Source: Gautieria morchelliformis (Eukaryota; Basidiomycota; Agaricomycetes; Gomphales; Gomphaceae). From it: DNA of 64,000 bases. This document shows, piece by piece, positions 36,519 through 58,185 of this stretch. How positions within the stretch are numbered: position 1 is the stretch's first letter; each line of letters starts with the position of its first letter. Where the stretch lies: NCBI GenBank assembly GCA_015179125.1, contig WHVA01000044.1, forward strand, positions 186,001 to 250,000, given 5' to 3'. The notes below the pieces were generated by a model. It was given only the letters and a program-made list of their open reading frames with translations, searched no databases and was not told the origin of the DNA. Made by a program: the position numbers and the translations under genes.

Positions 36519-36540
36519 CAATTGAAGATTGTCCAGGGTC

Positions 36541-38487: not shown

Positions 38488-38955
38488 TGTAAGGGCAACC
38501 CTGGCTAGTCGTGGAGATCACACTACCACACAACTGACAAGGGGAAATCCAAAGTATGTATAAATGAACAGAGCATACAAGAGAGGGGGTTCTCACCTGA
38601 CAAGGGGAAATCCAAAGAGAAAAGTCTAAGGACCCCCAATGTCAGCGAGCCCGTATTATACTACGCTGCGCAACCAGGGACAACGCTTGGCACCCGCCAT
38701 CAACCCTGCATCCCCCTGACCCTTGATCGACCCTTGATGCCACCTATTATGCGAGTCGCTTGATTTCCGACACTGTTCCGGGGCGGAAGTCGGAAATCGG
38801 AGTGGAACTGGCAAGGCGAACGGAACTGGTGGAAGTTCTCCCAGAAGCGGAATCGTTCCCGAAAGCGGATGCGGAGATGGAATCGGAACCGGAAGCGGAG
38901 TCGGAACTGGGTGTGGTGTCGGAACTGGAAATGGAAAACAGGGTGTCCCCTGACA
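38488..38955 (-). repeat. 3' LTR of C
   Basis: TG...CA on the minus strand. Differs from the 5' LTR at one site seen: GGGGCGGAAG here, GGGGCAGAAG in the 5' LTR (44470). The end of pol reads into it. Confidence 0.95.
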
Positions 38956-41900
38956 TCACCCCCCCTCTAGCGTGCTGCGTCCTCGAAGCGCGGGACACAA
39001 GGGATTGAAATGCCAGCGAGCAGATTCGGCGAGGGGCACCTGGATGTGTCCTGTAGAACTCCCGGAGTTTGTCAGGAGCGGAAACATCTTGCTCTGGGAC
39101 CCACGAATTCTCCTCGTACCCATACCCTTCCCATTTCACGAGGAATTGGAGTCGTCCTCGCACAAACCGGCTGTCCAGGATCCGTTCTACCACGTAGTGC
39201 TCTTCCCCATCTACAATTTCTGGCGGAGGTGGCGGATGAGCCTTCCGACGTGGAATTGGGTCCTCAAGCATAGGGAGTAACTTCACCACGTTGAAGACGG
39301 GGTGGAGGCGGGACATGGACATCGGAAGTCGGAGGCGGTATGCATTCCGTCCAACCCTCCGCGTCACTGTGAAGGGCCCAAGGTAGCGGTGGGCAAGCTT
39401 CTGCGAAGGGCGTGTGGTGCGGATGTCGCTTGCATCTAGGTACACCTTGTCTCCAACTTGGTACTCTGGGGCAGGAACCCGGCGTCGGTTGTAGTACCTT
39501 GCCATGTCATCCTTGGCCTTCGCAAGGGCCGACTTGGCTTCCGAAAGGGTGGAGTCCATGCGGTCTCGGAACTCATTGACCGTCTTGAGTCGGGAGTCAG
39601 CCTGGCGTGGTTCGAAGCCCATCCGCGGGTGTCGTCCGGAGTCAAGCATGAAGGGAGTCTGTTGCGTGGCGGAATGGACATGGTTGTTGTATTGGAATTC
39701 CGCCAGCGGAAGTAACTCATCCCAGTCATCCTGCCTCTCATTGACAAAGAGGCGGAGATATTGCTCCAACTCCTGATTGACCCGTTCCGTCTGTCCGTCA
39801 CCCTGCGGATGGTACGCTGTGGTGGTAGCCAGCTTTATGCCGAGCAGGCGGTAGAGCTCCCGAGTCAGTTCCGCGACAAACTGCGGACCTCGGTCGGAAA
39901 CGACTTGCTTCGGGAGCCCATGCAACTTCCAGACATGTGCAAGGAACAGGCGGGCCGCTCCGAGGGCTGTGATCGTCGTGTGCGTCGGAATGAAGTGGGA
40001 CACCTTGCTCACCGAATCCACGACGTTCATGATCGCATCGTAGCCATGAGACTCTGGGAGTTCAACGATGAAGTCGACACTGATGGTGTCCCAGCGGGAT
40101 TCGGGAATCGGGAGCGGAACAAGTTCTCCGACGGGCGGACGTCGTTGCGCTTTGGTTCGGAGACAAAGGTCACACGTCTTCACATACTGTCCGATGTAGC
40201 GGGACATCTGAGGCCACCAGTAATTCCGAGCCACTAACTCCAGCGTCTTCCACCTGCCAGCATGCCCAGCGACCCGTGTGTCATGGTGCTGGGACACGAT
40301 GCGACGGCGGAGGTCCGCCCCACCCGGAACATAGACCTTGCCTCTGAAGTGGAGCAGTCCATCACGTTCCGACCATTCCGCTGCCCGTACAGACCGTGAG
40401 TGCCCCTTCCGGAGTTCCTCCACTGCCTTCACCACCGACTCCTCCTTCTCTCCATTCCGGTACTGCCTCCGGATATCCCGGAGCATTTCCGCTTCCGCCC
40501 CAACTGCAGTTACTCCTTCTAGGGCACGGATTGCAAAGAGACTTGGGCGGAGCAGTGTCATATCCGCGTTGTCTCCACTTCCGCTTCCGTGATCCGCGCG
40601 GCGGGATAGGGCATCGGGCTTGCCCATGGTGCGGCCGGGGCGGTGGTGGAGCATGAAGTCAAACCGGGACAGGTGTAGGGACCACCGTGCTTGTCGTCGG
40701 TTCAGCTTCTTAGCCATGCGGAAATACTCGAGGTTCTTGTGGTCTGTCCAGATCTCAAAAGGGCATAGAGCACCCTCGAGGAAGTGTCGCCACTCCTCCA
40801 GCGCTCGGATGATTGCCAGCATCTCCTTGTCATGGATCTCATAGTTCCGCTCGACCGGACTAAGGCTCTTAGAGAAGAAGGCAATCGGATGCCACCCCCC
40901 ACCATCTTCCGATGACTGCTGTGACAAGACCGCTCCGGTAGCTGCGTCGGAAGAATCCGCCTCGACTCGATAAGGGCGAGAGTCGTCGGGAAAGATCAGG
41001 ACCGGGGCGGAAGTGATCAGCTCCTTGAGTTTGTCAAAGGAAGTCTGTTCCGGCTCTCCCCACCGCCATCCAACCTCCTTCTTGGTGAGGTCGAAGAGGG
41101 CACGGGCGTGGCAGGAGAAGTCCTTGATGAACCGCCGGTAGAAATTGACAAACCCAATGAAGGACTGGACCTCCTTCTTGTTTCGCGGCGCGGGCCAATC
41201 CGATACACCGGAAACTTTGACTGGGTCCATTTCCACCTTTCCTTCCGACACAATCACCCCAAGATACTCTATCCGCGTCCGCTCAAATTCGCACTTTTCC
41301 GGCTTGAGACACAGGTTGTACTCCCGGAGCCGTTCCAGCACTCTCCGCATGACTTCCTGATGTTCGGACATTGTTTTCGTGAAAATGAGGATGTCATCGA
41401 GGTAGACGCAGACAACCCCTTCTGCTATCATGTCACGGAAAATGTCATTCATCATCGTCTGGAATGTGGCGGGACTGTTGGTGAGGCCAAAGAACATGAC
41501 CTGTGGCTCAAAGAGTCCTCGATTGGTGCGGAATGCGGCCTTCCACTCGTCTCCCTCCCGGATCCGGACATTGTTGAAGCCCCAGCGGACATCCAGCTTA
41601 GTGAAGTACCTTGCCCCGCGGAGTTGTGTGATCAGTTCGGAAATGAGTGGAATGGGGTACCGGTTCTTGATCATGATCGCATTCAAGGTCCGGTAGTCCT
41701 GCACAAGTCTGAGCGAGCCATCCTTCTTCTTGATGAAGAACACCGGAGATGCCATGGGTGACTTGGAGGGGCGGATCCTCCCTGTACGGAGGTTTTCCGC
41801 AAGGAACGCATCGAGCTCTACCTGCCCCTTGGGTGACAGCGGGTAGACCTTGCAGTTGGTGGGCTTTGACCCAGGCTCCAACTCGATGGCGTGGTCCCAC

Positions 41901-42871
41901 AGCTTCCGTGGAGGCAGGGTATCAAACGACTCCTTGGAAAAGACGTCCTCGAACTCTCGCAGGTACTCCGGAATTTCCGCCTCTACTCTATCATGCCTCT
42001 TGGAGGCTTCAGCAAGGCGTTGCGAAATATTTCCGGTGGCGCGGATGTGTTCCGCTTCCGGCGGAAGGTTTACGTACAGCAAGCGCTCCCCTTCCGCCAG
42101 AATGTCTTCCGGGCCGAGTCGGATGACGTCGGAATCAGAATCGGAATCGGAAGTGGGATCCGGTTCAAATTCCGCTTCCGAGTCTTCTTCTGCAAGCAGT
42201 GGATGGGGGCCAGAACGACATGTCTGTATGAGCCGTTCAGTCTTCCGCTGCTCCTGGCGCTCCTTCCGCAGTTCCGACCTGCACATGTGACACTTGGCTG
42301 GACATCGACTCATCAGTACCTTCCGAGTCTGCCAATTGATCTCCGGGTTGTGCTCCTGAAGCCAGGTAAACCCGAGGATGATGTCCTGCTTCCCCAGGCT
42401 GGTGACTGCAAAGGAAGTGCGTTCTGAGTGTCCATCGTAGCGGAGAATTGTGTCTACTATCTCCGTGATGGACCCTGCCTCATTGGGGCTTCCATCCACA
42501 TTGAACACCGGGATTGCACGTTGCAACTTCCGCGTGGTCAGTCGGTTCCGTTCCACATAGTCCCGGTCCATAAACTGACCAGTGGCCCCGCAATCGACAA
42601 GGGCGGGTCCGGATTTGACTTCCGCCGTATCTGTCGTCTGGATCTCCACCTTAATGACTAGTGACTTGGGGCCAGGGGTGGCAGCAACAACATAGCGCTT
42701 CGGAAGGCGTCTCTCCCAAGGGCGGATGCGGGATGGATGGGGTGTCAGATTTGGTTTTTGTGTGACTTTATCCGGTGGGTCTGTACGAAGTGAGGGGAGT
42801 GGGGGCTTTTCATTCTCTACTTCAAGACAGGCAAACCGGTTATGTACAGGCAGCAGGGGCACACATCTCAC
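38747..42871 (-). CDS. Pol polyprotein of chromovirus C
   Basis: 1374 codons without a stop. Protease with [13 protein letters not shown] (D-C-G in place of D-[ST]-G); RT with [15 protein letters not shown] and catalytic VCVYLDDILIF; RNase H (EADSSDAATGAVL, HDKEMLAIIRALEEW, WTDHKNLEYF); integrase HHCC (HHDTRVAGHAGR, CDLCLRTKA) and DDE residues in SVDFIVELP, VSDRGPQFVAEL and GDGQTERVNQELEQ; GPY/F (HRYLGPFTVTRRVG); chromodomain (HYVVERILDSRF, LQFLVKWEGYG, NSWVPEQDV). The frame lies in -1 relative to gag and overlaps its end, being open for at least 16 codons before the gag stop, so a frameshift or reinitiation is needed. The last 70 or so codons run through the polypurine tract into U3 and encode a Ser-rich tail. 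Confidence 0.95.
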   Translation of the reverse strand: MRCVPLLPVHNRFACLEVENEKPPLPSLRTDPPDKVTQKPNLTPHPSRIRPWERRLPKRYVVAATPGPKSLVIKVEIQTTDTAEVKSGPALVDCGATGQFMDRDYVERNRLTTRKLQRAIPVFNVDGSPNEAGSITEIVDTILRYDGHSERTSFAVTSLGKQDIILGFTWLQEHNPEINWQTRKVLMSRCPAKCHMCRSELRKERQEQRKTERLIQTCRSGPHPLLAEEDSEAEFEPDPTSDSDSDSDVIRLGPEDILAEGERLLYVNLPPEAEHIRATGNISQRLAEASKRHDRVEAEIPEYLREFEDVFSKESFDTLPPRKLWDHAIELEPGSKPTNCKVYPLSPKGQVELDAFLAENLRTGRIRPSKSPMASPVFFIKKKDGSLRLVQDYRTLNAIMIKNRYPIPLISELITQLRGARYFTKLDVRWGFNNVRIREGDEWKAAFRTNRGLFEPQVMFFGLTNSPATFQTMMNDIFRDMIAEGVVCVYLDDILIFTKTMSEHQEVMRRVLERLREYNLCLKPEKCEFERTRIEYLGVIVSEGKVEMDPVKVSGVSDWPAPRNKKEVQSFIGFVNFYRRFIKDFSCHARALFDLTKKEVGWRWGEPEQTSFDKLKELITSAPVLIFPDDSRPYRVEADSSDAATGAVLSQQSSEDGGGWHPIAFFSKSLSPVERNYEIHDKEMLAIIRALEEWRHFLEGALCPFEIWTDHKNLEYFRMAKKLNRRQARWSLHLSRFDFMLHHRPGRTMGKPDALSRRADHGSGSGDNADMTLLRPSLFAIRALEGVTAVGAEAEMLRDIRRQYRNGEKEESVVKAVEELRKGHSRSVRAAEWSERDGLLHFRGKVYVPGGADLRRRIVSQHHDTRVAGHAGRWKTLELVARNYWWPQMSRYIGQYVKTCDLCLRTKAQRRPPVGELVPLPIPESRWDTISVDFIVELPESHGYDAIMNVVDSVSKVSHFIPTHTTITALGAARLFLAHVWKLHGLPKQVVSDRGPQFVAELTRELYRLLGIKLATTTAYHPQGDGQTERVNQELEQYLRLFVNERQDDWDELLPLAEFQYNNHVHSATQQTPFMLDSGRHPRMGFEPRQADSRLKTVNEFRDRMDSTLSEAKSALAKAKDDMARYYNRRRVPAPEYQVGDKVYLDASDIRTTRPSQKLAHRYLGPFTVTRRVGRNAYRLRLPMSMSRLHPVFNVVKLLPMLEDPIPRRKAHPPPPPEIVDGEEHYVVERILDSRFVRGRLQFLVKWEGYGYEENSWVPEQDVSAPDKLREFYRTHPGAPRRICSLAFQSLVSRASRTQHARGGVMSGDTLFSISSSDTTPSSDSASGSDSISASAFGNDSASGRTSTSSVRLASSTPISDFRPGTVSEIKRLA
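38956..38970 (-). other. Polypurine tract of C
   Basis: Minus strand CTAGAGGGGGGGTGA directly before the 3' LTR. Confidence 0.75.
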
Positions 42872-44043
42872 CCGCTGCGTGTCACAAAATCCGATGCATC
42901 TTCCGCTTCCGGTAGACCATGTTCCGCATTTTCGGAAAGCTCTTCCGCAGTGGGCACTCCGTTTATGTCTGCAAGCGCGAGGAACTCTGGAAGGATCTCG
43001 AGTTTCTCCTCTGTGGTCATAAGCCGGATATCAAAGGCTTGGGGGCACTCGCGAGCGTAGTGGCCTGGTTGTCGGCAGCAGAAGCAGGTGATAGTTCCGT
43101 GGCCTTTTCCGCGCATGCGGTCAACATCCATCGGGGCAGGGCCACTCTTCGAGGGAGGAGGGCTATGGTTCCTAATAGGAGCAGGCGGAGCAAGCATCGG
43201 AAATAATTTCCGTGTGGGAATGAATGCGCTTCCGGGTTTGGGCACAGGTTGAGTAGGACGAGCGGAACTGCATGTCGTGTTCCGACTCGTCTCCACGAAG
43301 GCCTCATTTGCCTCCCTGTTCCGAGAACCCTTCTGCGCAGCTTGGTACCACCCTTCCGGGTCATCAAAATCCGGAGCTCCATCCCCAAGCAGCGCAACTT
43401 GGTTCTGGAGCGTCGGATCAAGTCCTCGTCGGAATTTGATGACGATCGTCTTGTCGTCGTCATATTCCGCAAGGTCGATGAGCTCCTGGAAGCGATCGAT
43501 GTAGTCATCGACCGGATCTTTGGCCTGGTACCAGCTCGTCCCCTCGAGCTTTGTAAGGGCTGTGAGCTGCTCGTTTTTCGGGCAGAACTGGTCGGAAAAT
43601 GTTTTCTCGAACGCGTCCCAGTCCCGGAAGTAGTTCCCCTTGCCCTTTGCTTCATGTCGGATCACCTTGTTTGCAAAACGGGCTGCGCGGTCCGATTTGA
43701 AAAAGGACAACGTCCAGTGAATCCGAGCCTGGTCGTTCGGAAAGAGGTCTCCGACAATTGCGAAGTAGATGCTGCATGTGTTGAAGAATGCGCGTCCCTT
43801 CTCCCGATCTCCGTCAAAGTCCGCCGGAGTTGCGGGTTTGACCTTTGCTAACTTCGCGGACATCCTCTTTTCCGCTAGTTCCGCTTTTCCGAAATCCGGA
43901 TCATCCAGCATTTCATTTCCACCACCTTGTGGAATATCTAACTTAGCCAAAATCACTTGTAAGGCTGTTTCAATCGCGTCGGTCTTCATCCGGTTCCGCG
44001 TCAATTCCTCCTCCATATTCCGAAGACGATCGTCCGGATCCAT
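42868..44043 (-). CDS. Gag of chromovirus C
   Basis: 391 codons from ATG 44043 (MDPDDRLRNMEEELTRNRMK) to TGA 42868, identical in length to B and D. Heptad-like N-terminus, Ty3/Gypsy gag core (IHWTLSFFKSDRAARFANKV; WDAFEKTFSDQFCPKNEQ), one CCHC knuckle in TCFCCRQPGHYAREC. One residue seen to differ from D (Val for Ala in TALQVILAKLD). An upstream open extension to the LTR exists, but only from a non-ATG codon. Confidence 0.93.
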   Translation of the reverse strand: MDPDDRLRNMEEELTRNRMKTDAIETALQVILAKLDIPQGGGNEMLDDPDFGKAELAEKRMSAKLAKVKPATPADFDGDREKGRAFFNTCSIYFAIVGDLFPNDQARIHWTLSFFKSDRAARFANKVIRHEAKGKGNYFRDWDAFEKTFSDQFCPKNEQLTALTKLEGTSWYQAKDPVDDYIDRFQELIDLAEYDDDKTIVIKFRRGLDPTLQNQVALLGDGAPDFDDPEGWYQAAQKGSRNREANEAFVETSRNTTCSSARPTQPVPKPGSAFIPTRKLFPMLAPPAPIRNHSPPPSKSGPAPMDVDRMRGKGHGTITCFCCRQPGHYARECPQAFDIRLMTTEEKLEILPEFLALADINGVPTAEELSENAEHGLPEAEDASDFVTRSG

Positions 44044-44161
44044 GTTGGAAGGAGAAATATGGGACGGGATTTCTGGGGTTGGGAGCTCGACGTAAGAAGA
44101 GGGGCTGTCGTACGCTATGGCGAATGCAACGCACAGTACGACCGCCGGTCCTCTAGGGGAG

Positions 44162-44171
44162 AGACTTTTCT
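44162..44171 (-). promoter_or_regulatory. Self-priming-type primer binding site of C
   Basis: AGAAAAGTCT on the minus strand, 2 nt inside the 5' LTR. Exact complement of AGACTTTTCT in the LTR, placed about 33 nt after TATAATA. Confidence 0.7.
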
Positions 44172-44173
44172 GC

Positions 44174-44641
44174 TGTAAGGGCAACCCTGGCTAGTCGTGG
44201 AGATCACACTACCACACAACTGACAAGGGGAAATCCAAAGTATGTATAAATGAACAGAGCATACAAGAGAGGGGGTTCTCACCTGACAAGGGGAAATCCA
44301 AAGAGAAAAGTCTAAGGACCCCCAATGTCAGCGAGCCCGTATTATACTACGCTGCGCAACCAGGGACAACGCTTGGCACCCGCCATCAACCCTGCATCCC
44401 CCTGACCCTTGATCGACCCTTGATGCCACCTATTATGCGAGTCGCTTGATTTCCGACACTGTTCCGGGGCAGAAGTCGGAAATCGGAGTGGAACTGGCAA
44501 GGCGAACGGAACTGGTGGAAGTTCTCCCAGAAGCGGAATCGTTCCCGAAAGCGGATGCGGAGATGGAATCGGAACCGGAAGCGGAGTCGGAACTGGGTGT
44601 GGTGTCGGAACTGGAAATGGAAAACAGGGTGTCCCCTGACA
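44174..44641 (-). repeat. 5' LTR of C
   Basis: 468 bp, TG...CA. Contains the TATAATA promoter element and the predicted transcript start used in the self-priming model. Confidence 0.95.
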
Positions 44642-44646
44642 GTGTC

Positions 44647-45198
44647 ACCACAGGCATCAATTCCGGATGCTGTTCTCCTGTTCATTTATGCTGTGCTGGC
44701 CATCTGCTTTACTGTAGCCACACGACCAATGGCTCAACAATATTTTGTATGACACAGAACTTCCACCTGGACAATGGCTCAAGGGTCCACATGATGTGTG
44801 ACACAACCCAATATGGCTCAGACCTTGCCTTGCTTAGACATGTATAAATTTTTATACAGCGTCATTTTTTTCTACAGTACTTATGTCCGGAACCCTTGGA
44901 AAAAGAAAACAAGAAGTCACGGAGCATGAAGAGAGCATAAATAACTTGGCAAAAAAAGTGGGGAAAGGAGAGCAGACCGAGCCCAAGATGGACCGAGAGG
45001 CAGGGGAATGCACAAAAAAGCACCTAATCAGCTCTACAAAAGTTTGTTCTGGATGGAGCATTAAAATGTAGAGCAGCTATTAAGTACACCTTACAGTATA
45101 AGTATTTATATCTTACTGTGATGCAACCAACTGGATGAAGGCTCAGAAGCCACCCACTGTGATGCATTACAAGCACCCAAAATGGCTCGGCTCACAGT
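44647..45198. other. No recognisable gene
   Basis: About 550 bp with only a 62-codon open frame (44883-45071) and several ATGGCTC words (for example CAATGGCTCAA at 44730 and 44772). Nothing else supported. Confidence 0.45.
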
Positions 45199-45588
45199 AA
45201 GATAGGGGACACCAGGAACCACCACCCCTGACATAAGTGAGTGTTTAGATCATGTGATGTGCCAAATTGAAAGACTTGGATCTCAATTTTTTCAAAAAGT
45301 GTGCCAGAAAATTCAATTTTGATATAGAGAAGTGCAAATTTTGTATCTAATTACTATACCTTCAATTGACTTGCTATATGTTACTGGGCAAGGGACTCTG
45401 CCCATGTTTGACCAATTTGCTGTGTCACATGGCACATGACCTCCCCAAATGGTCATCCATCACTGAGCACCTAGACTTGAACCCAGTCTCACAATGATGA
45501 TGATTAGAAGATATTCATTCTAAAGGTTACCAGAGAGACTGGTGGAACTTATGAGGCACGTCGTGGAGTGCCATCTCTGCTTGAACTC
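45199..45588. repeat. MITE2-like repeat, copy 2
   Basis: TAAGATAGGGGACACCAGGA at the left and GGAACTTATGAGGCACGTCG...ATCTCTGCTTGA at the right match the ends of 36076-36518. Outer bases again resemble the mariner-like terminal repeat. Confidence 0.6.
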
Positions 45589-45744
45589 TTTTATGGGGAC
45601 TTAGAATTTTCAGGCGTGTCCCACTGCCACGCTCGCTGTACTGCCTTCCAATCTGGCTTTGGCCCCTCAGACCCTTCACCAAACCTCTGTATTTAGCTAA
45701 ATACTGTACCCTGGTGTACTTGGTTTCATCATATCTGCCTGATC

Positions 45745-48585
45745 TTGTACTGGGCTGCTGTGCCCGCTATCATACTGGGCGCAATGTGTCCTCTGCACAC
45801 AGTGCCTGATATTCCTGATGGGTTCTCATCTGAACCTGAAGACACGGAGATGCAGACATCAACCGGTTTTGTAAGTGTTCCAACCAGGGGTTCTTCCACA
45901 CCTCTGGTTTCCCAACACGCACCTTCTTCCCCACTTAGCATCCTCGGCTCTCCTCTTAAGCGGAAATGTGGCAGACCTGCAGGGACTCGAAAGCTACAAA
46001 AGCAGGCTGAGAAGTCCATGAACACAGAGGAGGTGAAGGAATTCTGGCAGTCAGAAATGGAACAGCGTGAGCGTCGCCAGAGTGAAGTTTGGAAGGAGGT
46101 ACTGGTCAGACAGCAGCAGCAGCAGCAGGAAGAAGACAAAATATTGAGGGTTATGCAGCCATTCACGCGTTGAAATCAGACCATGGCTTCGCTTCAGTTT
46201 GGGATTTCTGGGACACGTTCTTTCACTCATCTGATCAGCAAGTTACGGCACATGCTTCGTGCTTAGTTAAAGCCCATGGGTCAGACCTGCTACATTATCT
46301 CTATCAATGTGATGCTGACGGGACGACAGGGTCTGCACTGGAGCTCCTGACCTCCAAGATAAAGAGAGAGGCGGAAGTGCTAGTAACCATGCTATCATGT
46401 CAGGAGCAGGCTTCTCTAACCAGCATTCTCGAGTCCTTTTCAATGGACACTTTACTCAACGAGTTGGAAACTTGTGCGCCGACGATCATGGCTCTTCTTC
46501 GCAAGGTTGTCCTTACCCAGAGAAAGAAGGGGCAGCTGGAGTTTGGGAAGTCATCTCGGCATAATCATGACCTGGTGTGTACTTGGAGTACTATGAGTGG
46601 GGAATGCTGATTGTAGGATGGACAGGTGTTAACGACAACTTGCTGTATGCTGGCATTTACTTGGAATGAGAAATCCAGCAACTTTCAGCCCAGTAACTTT
46701 CAGCTGGTTCTTGGTTTGTTCCTGCTGGGTTCAGGGGGCCAAAAAGGGTCTGATTGAGGTTCTCACACATGCGGGCCTCACGCTTTCCTACACCAGTATT
46801 GTTAACAAAGTGAAGCAGCTCTCAAAAGAGGGAGCAGCACACTTTGTTCGCATGATTCATGAAAAGATGTGCATGGTGGTGTGGGATACATCAACATCAC
46901 TTTTCGGGTGGCCAAACAGCAGGTGGACTCAAAGGATCATTTCGACAATGGAACGACAGCGACCCTCATTCCATGGTTCAATCCACAAACAGGTGGCTCA
47001 GTTGAACATGGATATCTGCCGCTGGACCTGAAACCACCCCGGTTGTCATGTCGCACAATGATGGAGACTCCGGCAAAGCTGCTCCTCCAAACGGGCATGC
47101 AGGAATTAGAACTGCAGCAGTCTCTTCTGTGGCAGCTAAAACGTCTTGCAATTGAACATGTGTGTCAAGATTGGTTTTCAGGCGTTAATATCGTGTATTA
47201 GTGAACACAGCGAATGCCGAATGACTTGTGCGAATAAGTATGCCGTTCGGCGAATAGGTGAACCAATGAATGTTCACAAGGTAAGAGGGTTTGCCTAAAC
47301 GGGGCTCACCCTATCTACAGTCGTAGCGAAATAGCCCGTGACTCTTGACAATGTAACGTGCAAGGTGTCACAGAAGGGCTGTCTAAGTCTCGACAATCCC
47401 TTCGCTGGCGAAGGTGCTCCTTTGGAGCCCTTCGCCAACAGCACAGAAAATGGTTCGAAGGCTAAGGTAACGAAGATGAAGTATGAGAACTCACCAGTGA
47501 TGCCTAAGTCCTCTGCTAGTCTAAGATGGAAATCTTCAAGAGAAGGCTTAAGACGATGACTACAGCGAGGTCAAAGCTGCACAAGATGAACGACGTATGA
47601 TAATCGAACTGGGGAATATACATGTGAATGTAAACTACTTATATCGAATGTTCGTAAGGTATCAGCAAATAAGAAAGAGGCCGTCACCAGTCAGGGTTGG
47701 ATAGGGGTGCGCAGTCATGATACAACATAGATGAAATAAACATACAATAGAATGTGAGAAGAGGGAGAACATGAAACGATGGAGAGTAAAGGTGGCGAAG
47801 GCATTTATGGACAAAACCATGTCTTGGGACCCGCATACATGCTACCCTGCACGGACTCTTGGTCTACTGGGTTGATCCCGCACGACCTATGGAAGGGATG
47901 TCCTGCGAACACACTTTGACCATACGAACGCCCAATGGGGTTGGATTAAGAAGACGATGGGGTTAATTATGAACCATCATGCCGGGTGAATGGTATCGAT
48001 TGTATTTGATGGTGTGCCTGCTGGCGAATGATGCGAGCAGCGAATAGCCGTTCGGCGAAATGCAAGGGAGGGCGAACAGAGGTGACATAGGGGAGGAGAG
48101 GTCGAGGTGGGGGGCGAAGCCGAGCGAACACTGAGGAGGAGTAGCGAAAGGGAAAATGGGGATGCCAAGGTGCAGGAAATACACAGGTCATGACAATCCA
48201 ACTATCAGAACACCATCGGAAGAGGGTCGAGCAGAGGAGGTGGTAGACCCAGTGATGACTGCCAAGTCAGTCCAAAGCCGTCGATCGTGCGTTTGACGGC
48301 GTGACGATGGTAATTGGCGCGAATCAGCGAGCATCGGTTGCCGAACATGACAATGGCGATCAGAATGAACACGGAAATGGGGTGAGAAATGGCAGGACAG
48401 AGCACCTGAGTATGAGGAATAAACACGTCATGACAATGTGCCAGGACTGGGACATCTGCAGGATAGCATCAGCAATGCCACAGTTATCATGGCGATTCCA
48501 CTTCACAAGCCAGAGCAGTTCCCATTACCCGCAATGAACATCGATGAGTCATCTATTGAGGGAACAATAGAGGTTCTCAATAATT
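45745..48585 (+). pseudogene. DUF6589-like gene, frameshifted and split by R1
   Basis: Blocks in three frames: SPLKRKCGRPAGTRKLQKQ with a CAG-coded Gln run (45745-46160); VWDFWDTFFHSSDQQVTAH and SILESFSMDTLLNELETCAP (46150-46600); EVLTHAGLTLSYTSIVNKV (46760-46850); INITFRVAKQQVDSKDHFDN with GTTATLIPWF (46880-46990); LWQLKRLAIEHV to 47162. After R1 it continues PGLGHLQDSISNATVIMA, LHKPEQFPLPAMNIDESS (48441-48585). The D-N-I-N-x-x-F-R and D-H-F-D-N-G-T-T-A-T motifs are those of the DUF6589 family common in agaricomycetes (from memory). A one-base loss in the D-N-I-N codons (near 46887) is one of the frame breaks. The 3' half is missing, cut by a RecQ-like fragment in the opposite direction. Confidence 0.65.
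47163..48435 (-). mobile_element. R1 copy iii in the DUF6589-like gene
   Basis: TGTCAAGATTGG...GTCATGACA, 1273 bp, target duplication ATGTG (47158-47162 and 48436-48440). Removing it and one ATGTG restores the reading E-H-V-P-G-L-G. One extra terminal unit of 240 bp (inner end at 48195). Confidence 0.93.
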
Positions 48586-48908
48586 TTCTGATGTGTGGGG
48601 TCAACGTCTCCAAGCTCCCAGTGCACAAAGAGAGGCAGATAAAAAGCAAGTGTTTTCCCCCCTCCAGTAGGTATAGACAGCATACAATCTTTGCCCTCCA
48701 AGATGGCGTCGCAGACTTCATACTGCCAGTCATAGATCTCTCGAATGCCATAGATTGTGGCCACCCGATGCGCGATTTGCTTGCGCATGGAATGTCTGAA
48801 CTCACCGAGGTCTGTATTGGTAGTCATGGCCAACCACTGTGCTACAAGTTTTGACAAAGTGGTGTCTGGACAGAAGCCATGGCACGGACAGGTGCCCATA
48901 GCAAGCAT
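48549..48908 (-). pseudogene. RecQ-like DEAD/DEAH helicase fragment
   Basis: YDWQYEVCDAILEGKDCMLS followed by IPTGGGKTLAFYLPL is the Q/Walker A region of RecQ-type helicases (motor I, G-G-G-K-T). Upstream part IAHRVATIYGI fits the same family. Only about 100 residues remain; homology ends near 48590 where the DUF6589-like gene, running the other way, ends. RecQ-like genes are common in fungal subtelomeres and in some mobile elements; which one this came from cannot be told. Confidence 0.7.
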
Positions 48909-48991
48909 AGTGAGACATTGACAAATTGAGGTACTAAGACTCTAATTTAGGTGGACCAACACATGAAAATTCTAAGTCCCCATGAAAGAAT

Positions 48992-49081
48992 TCTATGCTG
49001 CTCCTGGTGTTGGGCGAAAGCAAAACACTAGATTGCTTGTCGAAGCTGCTCTCTTGCACGCCTTTGGGGACGGGCTCGAGC
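48992..49081 (+). repeat. Module a, copy 1
   Basis: 90-bp block starting TCTATGCTGCTCCTGGTGTT, repeated almost exactly at 49324-49413. Both copies keep an open frame reading YAAPGVGRKQNTRLLVEAAL, so it may be a gene exon fragment. Family unknown. Confidence 0.8.
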
Positions 49082-49160
49082 TGGCAGTAACGAGAGACAA
49101 ACTAACTAACAACACAAGAAAATTAACTAACAACAAAATAGGGAAGTGGTGGGTGGGTGA

Positions 49161-49320
49161 GAAAAAAAGAAAAGACTGCGACTACCGTCGCTGAAGGATG
49201 AAAGAAGGCCACTCCAAGTGTTGGACTGTGGCGGTCAGAAGGAAAGACAATGGCAGTATGTATGCTTGTGGATCACACTGCGTCGCCTCATAGACCCTGG
49301 ACAATCTTCAATTGTCCATC
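49161..49320 (+). repeat. Module b, copy 1, including the unoccupied mariner site
   Basis: GAAAAGACTGCGACTACCGT...CACTGCGTCGCCTCATA matches 50625-50758 with few differences. It runs on through TAGACCCTGGACAATCTTCA to the start of module a copy 2. That run-on is the sequence found left of the mariner-like element at 36518-36542, so this copy represents the site before transposon insertion. Confidence 0.85.
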
Positions 49321-49323
49321 CTA

Positions 49324-49413
49324 TCTATGCTGCTCCTGGTGTTGGGCGAAAGCAAAACACTAGATTGCTTGTCGAAGCTGCTCTCTTGCACGCCTTTGGG
49401 GATGGGCTCGAGC
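49324..49413 (+). repeat. Module a, copy 2
   Basis: Near-identical to 48992-49081; one substitution in the last part (GGGGATGGG against GGGGACGGG). Confidence 0.8.
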
Positions 49414-49499
49414 CAACACGAGCGAAAGTGGAGAGCCAGCGGCTCGGGAAGCTGAGCGCCGGAACGTGCCCAAAGGAGCAGGGGTTGAAGATGTTGGGA

Positions 49500-49925
49500 C
49501 ACGAGGTAGAGTAAGGACATAAGGTCAAGTGGCGACGTAAAGTCGGGACGTGGGGTCCAATGGGGACACAAGGTTGATGGGGACGCAAAGTCAGGACTGG
49601 AGCCAAGCACCAGTCAAAAAGGGGGTGAGTCGAGACCGCAGTCAAGTGAGGACAGAAGATCAAGTAGCGACATGAAGTCGGAACGCAAAGTCGATGAGGA
49701 CACAAAGTCGATGGGGACACAAAGTCAATGGGACACAAAGTCAATGGGGACACAAAGTCAATGGGGACACAAAGTCAATGGGGACACAAAGTCAATGTGA
49801 CACAAAGTCAATGGGGACACAAAGTCGATGGGGACATGAAGTCGATGGGGACATAAAGTTGGGACCACAGTCAAGTGAGGACATAAGGTCAAGTGGTGAC
49901 GTGGAGTCAGGACATGGGGTCGAGT
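49500..49925. repeat. Minisatellite, unit about 17 bp
   Basis: Tandem units of the type GGGGACACAAAGTCAAT. The best part, 49690-49860, has about ten near-perfect units; outside it the units decay (GGGGACGTAAAGTCG and similar). No spacers, so not a CRISPR array. Confidence 0.9.
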
Positions 49926-50029
49926 GGGGTTGTAACGTTTCAATAGGATCGAGTAACGAGGCCCTTCGGCCTAAGCGGCGTGACTCAGATAGACCACCAG
50001 TAGAATCTTCGCCATCATGCTACTGTGCA

Positions 50030-50600
50030 AATGATGATACACCAATGAGTGCGCGACACATTCCCAGGTGGTGCATCTCCAGAAAGGGCTACACGTTTGT
50101 ACGTCTTTTCTCGACGATGTCGAATGAATCCTTCAATCAGATATCCGGCTATGAACGCTGCAGATGCTAGACCATATGCCAGGATAAGGATAAAAGAAAG
50201 ACAAGATATGGACCCTATTTGGCATGCAGGCTCTGTGCCTGGGGGCGACGTTTGGGGAGCAAGTGAAAGAACAGAAGAATGAGTGGAAGTCGTTGTGGCA
50301 TGCTGGGCAAGGGGATATGATGCTCTCCGCCTGCGACAAACTTATTTGAAGTGTCTGGACCTGCTCAGACATGCAACAAACGGGTCCATCCGCATAAGAT
50401 GTGCCACAGACAGAGACCAAGAGAGACCGGAACTTGTCGGTTTCGGGCTCTACTGCCGGACCATCATACTGACAAGGGAGTTGTTGGCCGAACCAGCTCT
50501 TTGTCCCACATGCACCATGCATGGCATAATGGCCATGCGAGTCTGCAGAATGAGACATCGCCTGCTTGACCATGACACGTGGTGCAAGAGAGGTGCACTG
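50030..50600 (-). pseudogene. NPC1-like sterol transporter fragment (captured exons)
   Basis: Minus strand: MHGACGTKSWFGQQLPCQYD, FRSLLVSVCG, CCMSEQVQTLQISLSQAESI and CPACHNDFHSFFCSFTCSPN match the Cys-rich N-terminal sterol-binding domain of Niemann-Pick C1 proteins (vacuolar/lysosomal membrane, sterol export). After an intron-like step a second piece reads SCLSFILILAYGLASAAFIA then YLIEGFIRHRREKTYKRVA, a membrane segment that suits the region after that domain. The intervening part is absent and there is no downstream gene, so this is an incomplete copy. It lies between the two copies of module b. Confidence 0.75.
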
Positions 50601-50624
50601 CAGTGGCAGACTGGCCTCTAGTAG

Positions 50625-50758
50625 AGAGAAAAAAGAAAAGACTGCGACTACCGTCGCTGAAGGATGAAAGAAGGCCACTCCAAGTGTTGGACTGTGGCAG
50701 TCAGAAGGAAAGACAATGGCAGTATGTACGCTTGTGGATCACACTGCGTCACCTCATA
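50625..50758 (+). repeat. Module b, copy 2, ending at the mariner terminal repeat
   Basis: Matches 49161-49290 and stops exactly at TCA-TA, where the mariner-like TIR begins. Confidence 0.85.
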
Positions 50759-50797
50759 AGATAGAGGACGCCCTAATAGGGCACCCTTATGTAATCT

Positions 50798-50813
50798 CTA
50801 ACCCTAACCCTAA
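50798..50813. repeat. Two and a half telomere-like units
   Basis: CTAACCCTAACCCTAA just inside the right terminal repeat of the mariner-like element. Too short to be a chromosome end. Confidence 0.6.
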
Positions 50814-50941
50814 AAGTGGCCAAAATCCTGAAGTTGAGTAAAAAAAAAAAATACTCATTAGATTTCAGATCAAGGATGCCTCCCCACCCATAGTCTATGT
50901 ACTCATAGTCTATGTATTGTAATGTATTAAGTACCAAAGTG

Positions 50942-52023
50942 CTATGCATAGGCAGCCTTTGCTTTCTCAGCCATCCAAGGGGGTAAAGTCCGGTGTCCAT
51001 GATACCTTCGGTTTGCCCAGGCAGCCATTGAGCCAGAAAGGCCTTGTGAGTATGCTGAAATGAATCTGGCAGATCTATTTGCATAGCTACTCCAAAAAAA
51101 AAAAAAACAATGAGTAATCCATATTCAGATGATGTGGAAACCACTGACCGCCGAATTTGGATCAATGGGATATCATCAAGGCATGCAATCACATTGCGCT
51201 CCATGGCATCCATATCTGTTGTTTGTGCACTTGACCTGTATCGGAACTTGACTGCACCCCAGTATTGCTCAATAAAGTTGAGCTCACAATGAAATTTTGG
51301 ATAAAATTCACAAATGTGGCCACGGGAGGTGATGTACTCCTCAAGCTGTGATTTCTGTGAACAAAAGTCGGGCTGACAAAATAAAAGACGCCGGCAGCAG
51401 CAGGCTGTCTTCCCTGTCTCACATTTGAAGCCTGGACACTGGGCATTCAAGGTTCCAGTTTGTGGCCAAAGACCCCGCTCACGAATAATAGTCTCCATGC
51501 CTTTAAACCATCCAGGCATTGTCGGATGGTCATCTGGGTAATAAAAATCTTTTGATTGCTGATTAGCACCAGTCCCAAAAGAACCATTTCGCATCCTTGG
51601 TGTGTCTTTATTTGGCACCCAATCCTTGCTTGCACCCTTGGGCATTTTTCGTGCAGAAAGGGCATCAGCAGCTCGCTTTTGGTGGCTAGGGGCATTGTCA
51701 AATGCAAAGAGGCCAGTGGCAAATCCATTGACCTTAGATTCAAAGATGTCAATTGCTTTTTCTACCTGTCGAATCAAGTCATCACAGGAGAAGTATCCAT
51801 CACGGTCCTTCCCAGCTTTGAAAATGATGCGTGCCTCACTAAATTCAGCAAACCGGTCAGTGATTGTTACTGGGTTGGAAAGGTACGCACTCATTGCCAT
51901 CAGTAAGCCGTCCCCATTCTGAGGTGACAAAGTCAGAAATCATCAAGGAGGCACCTTCACCTTTGCGCTGTGGGGTTGCCTTGTCACTTGAATGAGACCA
52001 TTGAGTCTTTTGGCGATCATATG
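50942..52023 (-). pseudogene. IS630/Tc1-mariner-like transposase, 3' exons
   Basis: Continues the gene at 36919-38487. Exon to 51891 (YDRQKTQWSHSSDK; GEGASLMISDFVTSEWGRL), intron 51890-51839 (GTGCGT...TTTAG), exon 51838-51149 (ARIIFKAGKDRDGYF; second Asp in LFAFDNAPSHQKRA; a Cys-rich insert CPGFKCETGKTACCC; Glu in HCELNFIEQYWGAVK), intron 51148-51087 (GTCAGT...GAGTAG, with a T tract), last exon 51086-50942 (YANRSARFISAYSQGLSG, AAWANRRYHGHRTLPP). The D, D and E residues form the catalytic triad. The Cys insert between the second Asp and the Glu could bind zinc (inference). Confidence 0.87.
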
Positions 52024-52028
52024 CATAG

Positions 52029-52496
52029 TGTCAGGGGACACCCTGTTTTCCATTTCCAGTTCCGACACCACACCCAGTTCCGACTCCGCTTCCGGTTCCG
52101 ATTCCATCTCCGCATCCGCTTTCGGGAACGATTCCGCTTCTGGGAGAACTTCCACCAGTTCCGTTCGCCTTGCCAGTTCCACTCCGATTTCCGACTTCTG
52201 CCCCGGAACAGTGTCGGAAATCAAGCGACTCGCATAATAGGTGGCATCAAGGGTCGATCAAGGGTCAGGGGGATGCAGGGTTGATGGCGGGTGCCAAGCG
52301 TTGTCCCTGGTTGCGCAGCGTAGTATAATACGGGCTCGCTGACATTGGGGGTCCTTAGACTTTTCTCTTTGGATTTCCCCTTGTCAGGTGAGAACCCCCT
52401 CTCTTGTATGCTCTGTTCATTTATACATACTTTGGATTTCCCCTTGTCAGTTGTGTGGTAGTGTGATCTCCACGACTAGCCAGGGTTGCCCTTACA
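52029..52496 (+). repeat. 5' LTR of D
   Basis: TGTCAGGGGACACC...CCCTTACA. Carries the CTTCTGCCCC variant, as does the 5' LTR of C; the 3' LTRs of both have CTTCCGCCCC. Confidence 0.95.
52324..52366 (+). promoter_or_regulatory. LTR promoter: TATA-like box and predicted start
   Basis: TATAATA at 52324-52330; AGACTTTTCT at 52357-52366, 33 nt downstream, is the predicted RNA 5' end and complements the primer site at 52499-52508. Confidence 0.6.
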
Positions 52497-52498
52497 GC

Positions 52499-52508
52499 AG
52501 AAAAGTCT
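52499..52508 (+). promoter_or_regulatory. Self-priming-type primer binding site of D
   Basis: AGAAAAGTCT, 2 nt after the 5' LTR. No tRNA-type TGG start. Perfect 10-nt complement of the LTR word AGACTTTTCT. The same pairing is kept in B and C. Confidence 0.7.
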
Positions 52509-52626
52509 CTCCCCTAGAGGACCGGCGGTCGTACTGTGCGTTGCATTCGCCATAGCGTACGACAGCCCCTCTTCTTACGTCGAGCTCCCAACCCCAGAAA
52601 TCCCGTCCCATATTTCTCCTTCCAAC

Positions 52627-53802
52627 ATGGATCCGGACGATCGTCTTCGGAATATGGAGGAGGAATTGACGCGGAACCGGATGAAGACCGACGCGATTGA
52701 AACAGCCTTACAAGCGATTTTGGCTAAGTTAGATATTCCACAAGGTGGTGGAAATGAAATGCTGGATGATCCGGATTTCGGAAAAGCGGAACTAGCGGAA
52801 AAGAGGATGTCCGCGAAGTTAGCAAAGGTCAAACCCGCAACTCCGGCGGACTTTGACGGAGATCGGGAGAAGGGACGCGCATTCTTCAACACATGCAGCA
52901 TCTACTTCGCAATTGTCGGAGACCTCTTTCCGAACGACCAGGCTCGGATTCACTGGACGTTGTCCTTTTTCAAATCGGACCGCGCAGCCCGTTTTGCAAA
53001 CAAGGTGATCCGACATGAAGCAAAGGGCAAGGGGAACTACTTCCGGGACTGGGACGCGTTCGAGAAAACATTTTCCGACCAGTTCTGCCCGAAAAACGAG
53101 CAGCTCACAGCCCTTACAAAGCTCGAGGGGACGAGCTGGTACCAGGCCAAAGATCCGGTCGATGACTACATCGATCGCTTCCAGGAGCTCATCGACCTTG
53201 CGGAATATGACGACGACAAGACGATCGTCATCAAATTCCGACGAGGACTTGATCCGACGCTCCAGAACCAAGTTGCGCTGCTTGGGGATGGAGCTCCGGA
53301 TTTTGATGACCCGGAAGGGTGGTACCAAGCTGCGCAGAAGGGTTCTCGGAACAGGGAGGCAAATGAGGCCTTCGTGGAGACGAGTCGGAACACGACATGC
53401 AGTTCCGCTCGTCCTACTCAACCTGTGCCCAAACCCGGAAGCGCATTCATTCCCACACGGAAATTATTTCCGATGCTTGCTCCGCCTGCTCCTATTAGGA
53501 ACCATAGCCCTCCTCCCTCGAAGAGTGGCCCTGCCCCGATGGATGTTGACCGCATGCGCGGAAAAGGCCACGGAACTATCACCTGCTTCTGCTGCCGACA
53601 ACCAGGCCACTACGCTCGCGAGTGCCCCCAAGCCTTTGATATCCGGCTTATGACCACAGAGGAGAAACTCGAGATCCTTCCAGAGTTCCTCGCGCTTGCA
53701 GACATAAACGGAGTGCCCACTGCGGAAGAGCTTTCCGAAAATGCGGAACATGGTCTACCGGAAGCGGAAGATGCATCGGATTTTGTGACACGCAGCGGGT
53801 GA
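52627..53802 (+). CDS. Gag of chromovirus D
   Basis: 391 codons, ATG 52627 to TGA 53800-53802; one amino-acid difference from C was seen. Same core and CCHC knuckle (TCFCCRQPGHYAREC). Pol overlaps its end in the -1 frame. Confidence 0.93.
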   Translation: MDPDDRLRNMEEELTRNRMKTDAIETALQAILAKLDIPQGGGNEMLDDPDFGKAELAEKRMSAKLAKVKPATPADFDGDREKGRAFFNTCSIYFAIVGDLFPNDQARIHWTLSFFKSDRAARFANKVIRHEAKGKGNYFRDWDAFEKTFSDQFCPKNEQLTALTKLEGTSWYQAKDPVDDYIDRFQELIDLAEYDDDKTIVIKFRRGLDPTLQNQVALLGDGAPDFDDPEGWYQAAQKGSRNREANEAFVETSRNTTCSSARPTQPVPKPGSAFIPTRKLFPMLAPPAPIRNHSPPPSKSGPAPMDVDRMRGKGHGTITCFCCRQPGHYARECPQAFDIRLMTTEEKLEILPEFLALADINGVPTAEELSENAEHGLPEAEDASDFVTRSG

Positions 53803-56800
53803 GATGTGTGCCCCTGCTGCCTGTACATAACCGGTTTGCCTGTCTTGAAGTAGAGAATGAAAAGCCCCCACTCCCCTCACTTCGTACAGACCCACCGGAT
53901 AAAGTCACACAAAAACCAAATCTGACACCCCATCCATCCCGCATCCGCCCTTGGGAGAGACGCCTTCCGAAGCGCTATGTTGTTGCTGCCACCCCTGGCC
54001 CCAAGTCACTAGTCATTAAGGTGGAGATCCAGACGACAGATACGGCGGAAGTCAAATCCGGACCCGCCCTTGTCGATTGCGGGGCCACTGGTCAGTTTAT
54101 GGACCGGGACTATGTGGAACGGAACCGACTGACCACGCGGAAGTTGCAACGTGCAATCCCGGTGTTCAATGTGGATGGAAGCCCCAATGAGGCAGGGTCC
54201 ATCACGGAGATAGTAGACACAATTCTCCGCTACGATGGACACTCAGAACGCACTTCCTTTGCAGTCACCAGCCTGGGGAAGCAGGACATCATCCTCGGGT
54301 TTACCTGGCTTCAGGAGCACAACCCGGAGATCAATTGGCAGACTCGGAAGGTACTGATGAGTCGATGTCCAGCCAAGTGTCACATGTGCAGGTCGGAACT
54401 GCGGAAGGAGCGCCAGGAGCAGCGGAAGACTGAACGGCTCATACAGACATGTCGTTCTGGCCCCCATCCACTGCTTGCAGAAGAAGACTCGGAAGCGGAA
54501 TTTGAACCGGATCCCACTTCCGATTCCGATTCTGATTCCGACGTCATCCGACTCGGCCCGGAAGACATTCTGGCGGAAGGGGAGCGCTTGCTGTACGTAA
54601 ACCTTCCGCCGGAAGCGGAACACATCCGCGCCACCGGAAATATTTCGCAACGCCTTGCTGAAGCCTCCAAGAGGCATGATAGAGTAGAGGCGGAAATTCC
54701 GGAGTACCTGCGAGAGTTCGAGGACGTCTTTTCCAAGGAGTCGTTTGATACCCTGCCTCCACGGAAGCTGTGGGACCACGCCATCGAGTTGGAGCCTGGG
54801 TCAAAGCCCACCAACTGCAAGGTCTACCCGCTGTCACCCAAGGGCAGGTAGAGCTCGATGCGTTCCTTGCGGAAAACCTCCGTACAGGGAGGATCCGCCC
54901 CTCCAAGTCACCCATGGCATCTCCGGTGTTCTTCATCAAGAAGAAGGATGGCTCGCTCAGACTTGTGCAGGACTACCGGACCTTGAATGCGATCATGATC
55001 AAGAACCGGTACCCCATTCCACTCATTTCCGAACTGATCACACAACTCCGCGGGGCAGGTACTTCACTAAGCTGGATGTCCGCTGGGGCTTCAACAATGT
55101 CCGGATCCGGGAGGGAGACGAGTGGAAGGCCGCATTCCGCACCAATCGAGGACTCTTTGAGCCACAGGTCATGTTCTTTGGCCTCACCAACAGTCCCGCC
55201 ACATTCCAGACGATGATGAATGACATTTTCCGTGACATGATAGCAGAAGGGGTTGTCTGCGTCTACCTCGATGACATCCTCATTTTCACGAAAACAATGT
55301 CCGAACATCGGGAAGTCATGCGGAGAGTGCTGGAACGGCTCCGGGAGTACAACCTGTGTCTCAAGCCGGAAAAGTGCGAATTTGAGCGGACGCGGATAGA
55401 GTATCTTGGGGTGATTGTGTCGGAAGGAAAGGTGGAAATGGACCCAGTCAAAGTTTCCGGTGTATCGGATTGGCCCGTGCCGCGAAACAAGAAGGAGGTC
55501 CAGTCCTTCATTGGGTTTGTCAATTTCTACCGGCGGTTCATCAAGGACTTCTCCTGCCACGCCCGTGCCCTCTTCGACCTCACCAAGAAGGAGGTTGGAT
55601 GGCGGTGGGGAGAGCCGGAACAGACTTCCTTTGACAAACTCAAGGAGCTGATCACTTCCGCCCCGGTCCTGATCTTTCCCGACGACTCTCGCCCTTATCG
55701 AGTCGAGGCGGATTCTTCCGACGCAGCTACCGGAGCGGTCTTGTCACAGCAGTCATCGGAAGATGGTGGGGGGTGGCATCCGATTGCCTTCTTCTCTAAG
55801 AGCCTTAGTCCGGTCGAGCGGAACTATGAGATCCATGACAAGGAGATGCTGGCAATCATCCGAGCGCTGGAGGAGTGGCGACACTTCCTCGAGGGTGCTC
55901 TATGCCCTTTTGAGATCTGGACAGACCACAAGAACCTCGAGTATTTCCGCATGGCTAAGAAGCTGAACCGACGACAAGCACGGTGGTCCCTACACCTGTC
56001 CCGGTTTGACTTCATGCTCCACCACCGCCCCGGCCGCACCATGGGCAAGCCCGATGCCCTATCCCGCCGCGCGGATCACGGAAGCGGAAGTGGAGACAAC
56101 GCGGATATGACACTGCTCCGCCCAAGTCTCTTTGCAATCCGTGCCCTAGAAGGAGTAACTGCAGTTGGGGCGGAAGCGGAAATGCTCCGGGATATCCGGA
56201 GGCAGTACCGGAATGGAGAGAAGGAGGAGTCGGTGGTGAAGGCAGTGGAGGAACTCCGGAAGGGGCACTCACGGTCTGTACGGGCAGCGGAATGGTCGGA
56301 ACGTGATGGACTGCTCCACTTCAGAGGCAAGGTCTATGTTCCGGGTGGGGCGGACCTCCGCCGTCGCATCGTGTCCCAGCACCATGACACACGGGTCGCT
56401 GGGCATGCTGGCAGGTGGAAGACGCTGGAGTTAGTGGCTCGGAATTACTGGTGGCCTCAGATGTCCCGCTACATCGGACAGTACGTGAAGACGTGTGACC
56501 TTTGTCTCCGAACCAAAGCGCAACGACGTCCGCCCGTCGGAGAACTTGTTCCGCTCCCGATTCCCGAATCCCGCTGGGACACCATCAGTGTCGACTTCAT
56601 CGTTGAACTCCCAGAGTCTCATGGCTACGACGCGATCATGAACGTCGTGGATTCGGTGAGCAAGGTGTCCCACTTCATTCCGACGCACACGACGATCACA
56701 GCCCTCGGAGCGGCCCGCCTGTTCCTTGCACATGTCTGGAAGTTGCATGGGCTCCCGAAGCAAGTCGTTTCCGACCGAGGTCCGCAGTTTGTCGCGGAAC

Positions 56801-57921
56801 TGACTCGGGAGCTCTACCGCCTGCTCGGCATAAAGCTGGCTACCACCACAGCGTACCATCCGCAGGGTGACGGACAGACGGAACGGGTCAATCAGGAGTT
56901 GGAGCAATATCTCCGCCTCTTTGTCAATGAGAGGCAGGATGACTGGGATGAGTTACTTCCGCTGGCGGAATTCCAATACAACAACCATGTCCATTCCGCC
57001 ACGCAACAGACTCCCTTCATGCTTGACTCCGGACGACACCCGCGGATGGGCTTCGAACCACGCCAGGCTGACTCCCGACTCAAGACGGTCAATGAGTTCC
57101 GAGACCGCATGGACTCCACCCTTTCGGAAGCCAAGTCGGCCCTTGCGAAGGCCAAGGATGACATGGCAAGGTACTACAACCGACGCCGGGTTCCTGCCCC
57201 AGAGTACCAAGTTGGAGACAAGGTGTACCTAGATGCAAGCGACATCCGCACCACACGCCCTTCGCAGAAGCTTGCCCACCGCTACCTTGGGCCCTTCACA
57301 GTGACGCGGAGGGTTGGACGGAATGCATACCGCCTCCGACTTCCGATGTCCATGTCCCGCCTCCACCCCGTCTTCAACGTGGTGAAGTTACTCCCTATGC
57401 TTGAGGACCCAATTCCACGTCGGAAGGCTCATCCGCCACCTCCGCCAGAAATTGTAGATGGGGAAGAGCACTACGTGGTAGAACGGATCCTGGACAGCCG
57501 GTTTGTGCGAGGACGACTCCAATTCCTCGTGAAATGGGAAGGGTATGGGTACGAGGAGAATTCGTGGGTCCCAGAGCAAGATGTTTCCGCTCCTGACAAA
57601 CTCCGGGAGTTCTACAGGACACATCCAGGTGCCCCTCGCCGAATCTGCTCGCTGGCATTTCAATCCCTTGTGTCCCGCGCTTCGAGGACGCAGCACGCTA
57701 GAGGGGGGGTGATGTCAGGGGACACCCTGTTTTCCATTTCCAGTTCCGACACCACACCCAGTTCCGACTCCGCTTCCGGTTCCGATTCCATCTCCGCATC
57801 CGCTTTCGGGAACGATTCCGCTTCTGGGAGAACTTCCACCAGTTCCGTTCGCCTTGCCAGTTCCACTCCGATTTCCGACTTCCGCCCCGGAACAGTGTCG
57901 GAAATCAAGCGACTCGCATAA
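53799..57921 (+). pseudogene. Pol of chromovirus D (two 1-bp deletions)
   Basis: Same domain order as pol of C. Protease and spacer open from 53799 to 54851; a G is missing in the run at 54842-54844 (AAGGGCAGG against AAGGGGCAGG in C); the next block ends near 55057 where an A is missing (GGGGCAGGTAC against GGGGCAAGGTAC in C); the last block, from RT F-T-K-L-D-V-R-W through YLDD, RNase H, integrase and chromodomain, is open to 57921, again reading about 70 codons into the LTR. Both changes are in short homopolymers, so sequencing error is a real alternative to mutation. Confidence 0.92.
57699..57712 (+). other. Polypurine tract of D
   Basis: TAGAGGGGGGGTGA ends directly at the 3' LTR. Confidence 0.75.
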
Positions 57922-58180: not shown

Positions 58181-58185
58181 GACAC

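What the first reader, a model, noticed from the sequence alone, without database searches (positions are those of the whole stretch)
44642..52028. 7.4-kb segment inverted between two near-identical inverted retrotransposons
C has flanks CTATG and GTGTC; D has CATAG and GACAC. Each is wrong alone, but reversing the interval gives CTATG/CTATG and GACAC/GACAC. The same reversal rejoins a transposase gene at codon level (S-T-F-Y then A-Y-D-R, sharing one CTATG), with five exons adding up to exactly 2490 nt, and turns two same-direction terminal repeats (36541 and 50757) into proper inverted ones. Three independent signs agree. Either ectopic recombination between C and D or an assembly inversion.
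Basis: seen in the sequence. Interest (0 to 1): 0.93.

Follow-up and report, generated by a model that had tools for sequence, protein, structure and literature searches.

The report
Probable assembly flip between twin retrotransposons
A 7.4-kb stretch really is drawn backwards between two almost identical mobile elements, but similar swapped ends occur at about half of the long copies of this element examined in this genome sequence, so it is most likely an assembly mistake rather than a biological inversion.

Summary
C (38488-44641) and D (52029-58180) are 99.9% identical inverted Ty3-type elements with flanks CTATG/GTGTC and CATAG/GACAC. Relative to the order before insertion, 44642-52028 is inverted. 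Paralogues support this: in 13 of 14 other copies of the split DNA transposon that reach the break (capped hit list), both halves lie together, sharing 5 bp. A copy of the transposon's empty site survives at 49159-49325.

The cause is most likely assembly. Of 35 full-length family copies whose flanks I read (C and D included), 17 mismatch, 16 match and 2 differ by one base. Orphan flanks pair up 10 times, 8 of them between contigs (1.5 expected in all). By position, six contigs end inside or at the edge of a copy. Short LTR copies match within one base in 28 of 31. Recombination in the cell stays possible (about one in four): C and D share a 5'-LTR base absent from the 28 other LTRs, a hint of gene conversion. 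Reads spanning C and D would decide. If real, this is ordinary transposon-mediated inversion.

The parts
36541..38487 (+). left half of a TA-flanked DNA transposon (41-nt terminal repeat at 36541-36581) with the 5' part of its putative transposase
   Evidence: weak HTH_32 match E 0.032, below Pfam's cut-off
38483..38487 (.). target-site copy CTATG, left of C
38488..44641 (-). retrotransposon C, Ty3/gypsy type with chromodomain; LTRs 38488-38955 (3') and 44174-44641 (5')
44642..44646 (.). GTGTC, right of C; reverse complement of D's right flank
44642..52028 (.). interval inverted relative to the pre-insertion order
49159..49325 (+). paralogous empty site of the DNA transposon: 49159-49292 resembles 50624-50758 (97%), and 49291-49325 is identical to the reverse complement of 36508-36542
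50757..52028 (-). right half of the same DNA transposon, now turned round (41-nt terminal repeat at 50757-50797)
   Evidence: weak DDE_3 match E 0.014, below Pfam's cut-off
52024..52028 (.). CATAG, left of D; reverse complement of C's left flank
52029..58180 (+). retrotransposon D; LTRs 52029-52496 (5') and 57713-58180 (3'); pol frame broken where D differs in length from C
58181..58185 (.). target-site copy GACAC, right of D

Best explanation
Two closely related Ty3/gypsy-type retrotransposons inserted in opposite directions, C into the putative transposase gene of a TA-flanked DNA transposon (target CTATG) and D 7.4 kb away (target GACAC). Each was originally flanked by its own 5-bp repeat. 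The inverted interval now shown is most likely an assembly flip: the assembler could not carry unique sequence through a 6.2-kb repeat whose two copies differ at 7 positions, and it joined the outer half of each copy to the inner half of the other. Shown here: the original order at C, and the fact that swapped flanks are common at the family copies examined in this assembly. Inferred: that the swap arose in assembly and not in the cell.
For: Flank swap. Uninterrupted transposon paralogues in 13 of 14 copies reaching the break (capped lists), with 11 of 11 aligned loci showing CTATG. In-window empty site. Flank survey: 17 of 35 full-length copies mismatched by two or more bases, or 15 of 33 without C and D. 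Orphan flanks match crosswise 10 times, 8 of these outside the C/D pair, against 1.5 expected in all; 0 of 20000 draws reached 10. They include a chain C546 (GCCTT/GCACC), C302 (GCACC/TCGTC), C367 (TCGTC/GTGTC). By position, assuming the usual copy length, four contigs end inside a copy (C753, C181, C530, C190) and two at a copy's very edge (C113, C148). C113 and C190 share a flank and an LTR variant, so they look like one element cut in two. The two LTRs of mismatched copies differ more than those of matched ones (P = 0.006 for 11 against 12 copies; 0.03 with C and D added). LTR copies of 0.47 and 1.48 kb match within one base in 28 of 31 (Fisher P = 0.001; with every doubtful or dropped row counted as a mismatch 27 of 33, P = 0.01). 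D's two 1-nt indels lie in short runs of one base, as unpolished long-read errors do (recalled).
Against: C and D share T at LTR position 171 in both 5' LTRs and in neither 3' LTR. The other 28 LTRs read (26 from other copies plus the 3' LTRs of C and D) have C. Retrotransposition should not transmit a difference between the two LTRs of one copy (recalled rule), so this hints at gene conversion between C and D in the cell, a process that can also make inversions. It is a C-to-T change at a CpG, and C296's 5' LTR has the neighbouring base of the same CpG changed, so recurrence is possible. 16 of 35 copies have matching flanks, so the assembly does resolve many. Recombination in the cell also favours long, near-identical copies, so the short-copy control does not separate the two causes cleanly; the same-family control alone is not significant (P = 0.08). 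A matched copy, C404, also has LTRs of unlike subtype, and the subtype contrast is not significant (5 of 11 against 1 of 12, P = 0.07).
Confidence: 0.72

Rival explanations
1. A real inversion in the sequenced strain: crossing-over between the inverted elements C and D after both had inserted, with gene conversion between them.
For: Perfect reciprocal flank swap; near identity over 6.15 kb; 5'-LTR base found only in C and D; six sites, that one included, at which C and D agree with each other and differ from the other copies compared. Inversion between homogenised inverted repeats is known in yeast (PMC9731477, abstract and section list read).
Against: Swapped flanks occur in 15 of 33 other full-length copies, and the partners found lie on other contigs, which seems too many for translocations in one strain; by position six contigs end inside or at the edge of copies. 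Internal variants shared by C and D may simply come from a common parent copy.
Confidence: 0.24
2. Two insertions next to pre-existing 5-mers, with flanks matching crosswise by chance, and no inversion.
For: None found.
Against: Chance of the double match about 1e-5; transposon halves are contiguous in 13 of 14 paralogues reaching the break; empty transposon site at 49159-49325.
Confidence: 0.01

Closest known systems
Retroelements with mismatched target-site duplications in the maize centromere 10 resequencing (PMC4806543, passages read)
   Same: complete elements whose 5-bp flanks disagree; [quoted passage not shown]
   Different: there retrotransposon-spanning PacBio reads decided; here no reads were at hand, and C and D swap with each other in inverted orientation
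Saccharomyces chromosome XIV flip/flop inversion (PMC9731477, abstract and section list read)
   Same: interval between near-identical inverted repeats of several kb, repeats homogenised, two orientations
   Different: 24-kb interval with 4-kb gene repeats, followed across strains and species; here retroelements, 7.4 kb, one assembly

Membership tests
Ty3/gypsy-type LTR retrotransposon (C and D) | TG...CA LTRs, 5-bp target duplication, gag, protease-RT-RNaseH-integrase order | tested here: met
   LTR 468 nt TG...CA; in C: gag, RVP_2, RVT_1, RNase H, integrase and chromodomain in that order (D not scanned, 99.9% identical); other copies with matching 5-bp flanks
Inversion by recombination between inverted retroelements | near-identical inverted copies with reciprocally swapped flanks | tested here: met
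Inversion by recombination between inverted retroelements | junctions present in DNA molecules (reads, PCR) | not testable with these tools
   no reads held
Repeat-induced misassembly | similar fault at other copies of the repeat, contigs ending inside copies, short repeats unaffected | tested here: met
   17 of 35 full-length copies; six contig ends by position; 28 of 31 short controls match
Repeat-induced misassembly | raw reads contradict the drawn joins | not testable with these tools
   no reads held
Tc1/mariner-like DNA transposon (the split element) | TA target, terminal inverted repeats, DDE transposase with HTH | tested here: inconclusive
   TA ends and 41-nt inverted termini; HTH_32 and DDE_3 matches only below Pfam's cut-offs

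The most novel reading that the evidence does not exclude
The swapped flanks are real: this young retroelement family recombines with itself so often that about half of its full-length copies have exchanged flanks between sites and chromosomes, and C and D are a local flip-flop pair kept alike by gene conversion.
Probability: 0.07. Interest if true: 0.7.

Novelty: not a real feature. Interest (0 to 1): 0.15.

Why it matters
As a finding it is mainly a warning. In this assembly, order and orientation across full-length copies of this 6.2-kb family should not be trusted without reads, and paired target-site duplications give a read-free way to find suspect joins and to propose the true partners. 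If reads showed the joins to be real, it would be an unusually recombinogenic retroelement family.

Tried and rejected
A possible contradiction was checked and dropped. 35720-36020 and 47163-48059 together resemble 61739-60569 reversed, which at first looked as if the present order were original. But 47163 is the end of a separate multi-copy repeat: other copies in the window have the same end at or next to 61465, 63421, 29338 and 27714, so the 61-kb case looks like a separate insertion.

An idea that C and D alone share a 57-bp deletion was dropped. The 12 other full-length 5' ends aligned have 57 extra bases there, but the hit lengths suggest that C247 (79.6 kb) and C202 (137-138 kb) lack them too.

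An allelic copy without C and D was looked for and not found: the inner and right flanks match fully only themselves (capped at 40 scored places each). No listed place spans the D site. Pfam gave no match above cut-off for the transposase pieces. Organism not identified. Papers: the search ('mismatched TSDs', LTR retrotransposon, assembly) gave one paper, PMC4806543; the listings were otherwise seen as listings only.

Controls and dropped rows: of 26 copies of the 1.48-kb repeat read, 2 were dropped (C981, C1003) because they share the same left flank and so are probably LTRs inside longer elements. C783 was counted as matching after allowing a shortened end. C219 was read by hand as one base off. 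Counting C981, C1003 and C783 as mismatches gives 21 of 26 within one base (one search uses this). Full-length copies were taken as two LTRs of the same direction about 6.2 kb apart; their interiors were mostly not read. Left out of the 35: C245 and C1003 at 182.9-189.1 kb (3' end not found where expected), C148, C530, C753, C181, C190 and C113 (contig ends), and 11 of the 40 5' ends, which were not read. A second LTR about 15 bases from C302's 5' LTR (L089) was fetched but not counted. The first LTR-difference test left out C and D; one search adds them. In one search, 5 of 9 loci scored low because they were read in the wrong direction; one search repeats the test both ways.

Full report
What is there. 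The window lies in a 369-kb contig (C493) of a 122-Mb, 1113-contig genome and holds no N. C (38488-44641, minus) and D (52029-58180, plus) are LTR retrotransposons with 468-nt LTRs; C was scanned and has gag and a protease-RT-RNaseH-integrase-chromodomain pol. They differ by five substitutions and two 1-nt indels. C has one long pol frame, and D's is broken.

The inversion. C's flanks are CTATG and GTGTC, D's CATAG and GACAC. Turning 44642-52028 round gives each element its own 5-bp repeat. Of 14 other places where the left half reaches the break, 13 have the right half next to it in the opposite direction, overlapping by exactly 5 bases. The exception is C204. In the 11 loci aligned, the alignment covers the whole 115 nt of the joined flanks (score 195-220 of 230), without a gap in 10 of 11, and the site reads CTATG in 11 of 11. 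A second line: 49159-49292 repeats the sequence beside the right terminus (97%), and 49291-49325 is identical over 35 nt to the reverse complement of 36508-36542, beside the left terminus. This is a copy of the transposon's empty TA site, so the flanks at 36540 and 50756 were once neighbours. For the D junction only the GACAC pair speaks, with a chance of about 0.0035.

Cause. I read both flanks of 35 full-length family copies, C and D included. They comprise 17 with LTRs close to C/D (7 exact matches, 10 mismatches) and 18 mostly of a related subfamily (9 exact, 2 one base off, 7 mismatches). Among 21 orphan 5' flanks and 20 orphan 3' flanks there are 10 cross matches, two of them C with D, against 1.5 expected; one or two may be chance. 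Some are backed by LTR variants: C543's 5' LTR and C296's 3' LTR share flank AAGAC and the variant C303T, which C543's own 3' LTR and C296's own 5' LTR lack. C302 joins a 5' LTR of one subtype to a 3' LTR of the other; 5 of 11 mismatched copies with LTR letters do so, against 1 of 12 matched copies (C404), which is suggestive only (P = 0.07). By position, six contigs end inside or at the very edge of a copy. Short copies behave differently: solo LTRs of the family are 5 exact, 1 one base off and 1 mismatch of 7; a 1.48-kb LTR-like repeat, older and less alike, is 17 exact, 5 one base off and 2 mismatches of 24. Together 28 of 31 match within one base, against 18 of 35 full-length (P = 0.001; against 18 of 33 without C and D, P = 0.002). 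The strictest count of the controls, 27 of 33, still gives P = 0.01. The same-family solo LTRs alone do not reach significance (P = 0.08). The simplest reading is that reads often failed to span 6.2-kb copies and the assembler joined wrong halves. A reciprocal translocation or inversion would give the same flanks, so sequence alone cannot exclude it, but so many in one strain is unlikely. C and D would be confused with each other rather than with other copies because they are each other's closest relatives among those compared: 1 difference in the first 1.9 kb and 2 in the last 2 kb, against 8-18 and 5-13 for C against other copies.

Hint for recombination in the cell. Both 5' LTRs of C and D have T at position 171 and both 3' LTRs have C. 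The 28 other LTRs have C. The site is a CpG, and one other LTR (C296, 5') has the neighbouring base of that CpG changed, so two independent mutations are possible; gene conversion between C and D seems the simpler reading to me. It would hold whether or not the interval is inverted in the living genome.

Literature. In maize centromere 10, five elements with mismatched target duplications are said to have been improperly assembled before, and three chimeric elements remained (PMC4806543, passages). In Saccharomyces a 24-kb interval flips between homogenised 4-kb inverted repeats (PMC9731477, abstract and section list). Both outcomes therefore have precedent.

Verdict. Observation confirmed; original order established by paralogues for the C junction and supported by its flank pair for D; assembly flip 0.72, real inversion 0.24.

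Noticed in passing
window 50133-50738: Minus-strand open frame with a Niemann-Pick C1 N-terminal domain fragment (Pfam E 7e-30), next to the split transposon.
   Followed up: no
window 50798-50813: Telomere-like CTAACCCTAACCCTAA directly inside the right terminal repeat of the DNA transposon.
   Followed up: no
window 49680-49880: Short tandem array of about 17-nt units (GGGGACACAAAGTCAAT) in the inner segment.
   Followed up: no
window 58396-59871: 1.48-kb LTR-like repeat (TG...CA) with flanks CTCGC/CTTGC and dozens of relatives in the genome; C349 holds a probable empty site.
   Followed up: partly
G000 contigs C113 and C190: Two contig ends inside or at the edge of one family copy share flank GGTTC and LTR variant A294G, suggesting that the contigs adjoin.
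   Followed up: partly
G000 contig C302, about 144.8-145.3 kb (L089): A second family LTR ends about 15 bases from C302's 5' LTR, so two copies lie almost back to back.
   Followed up: no
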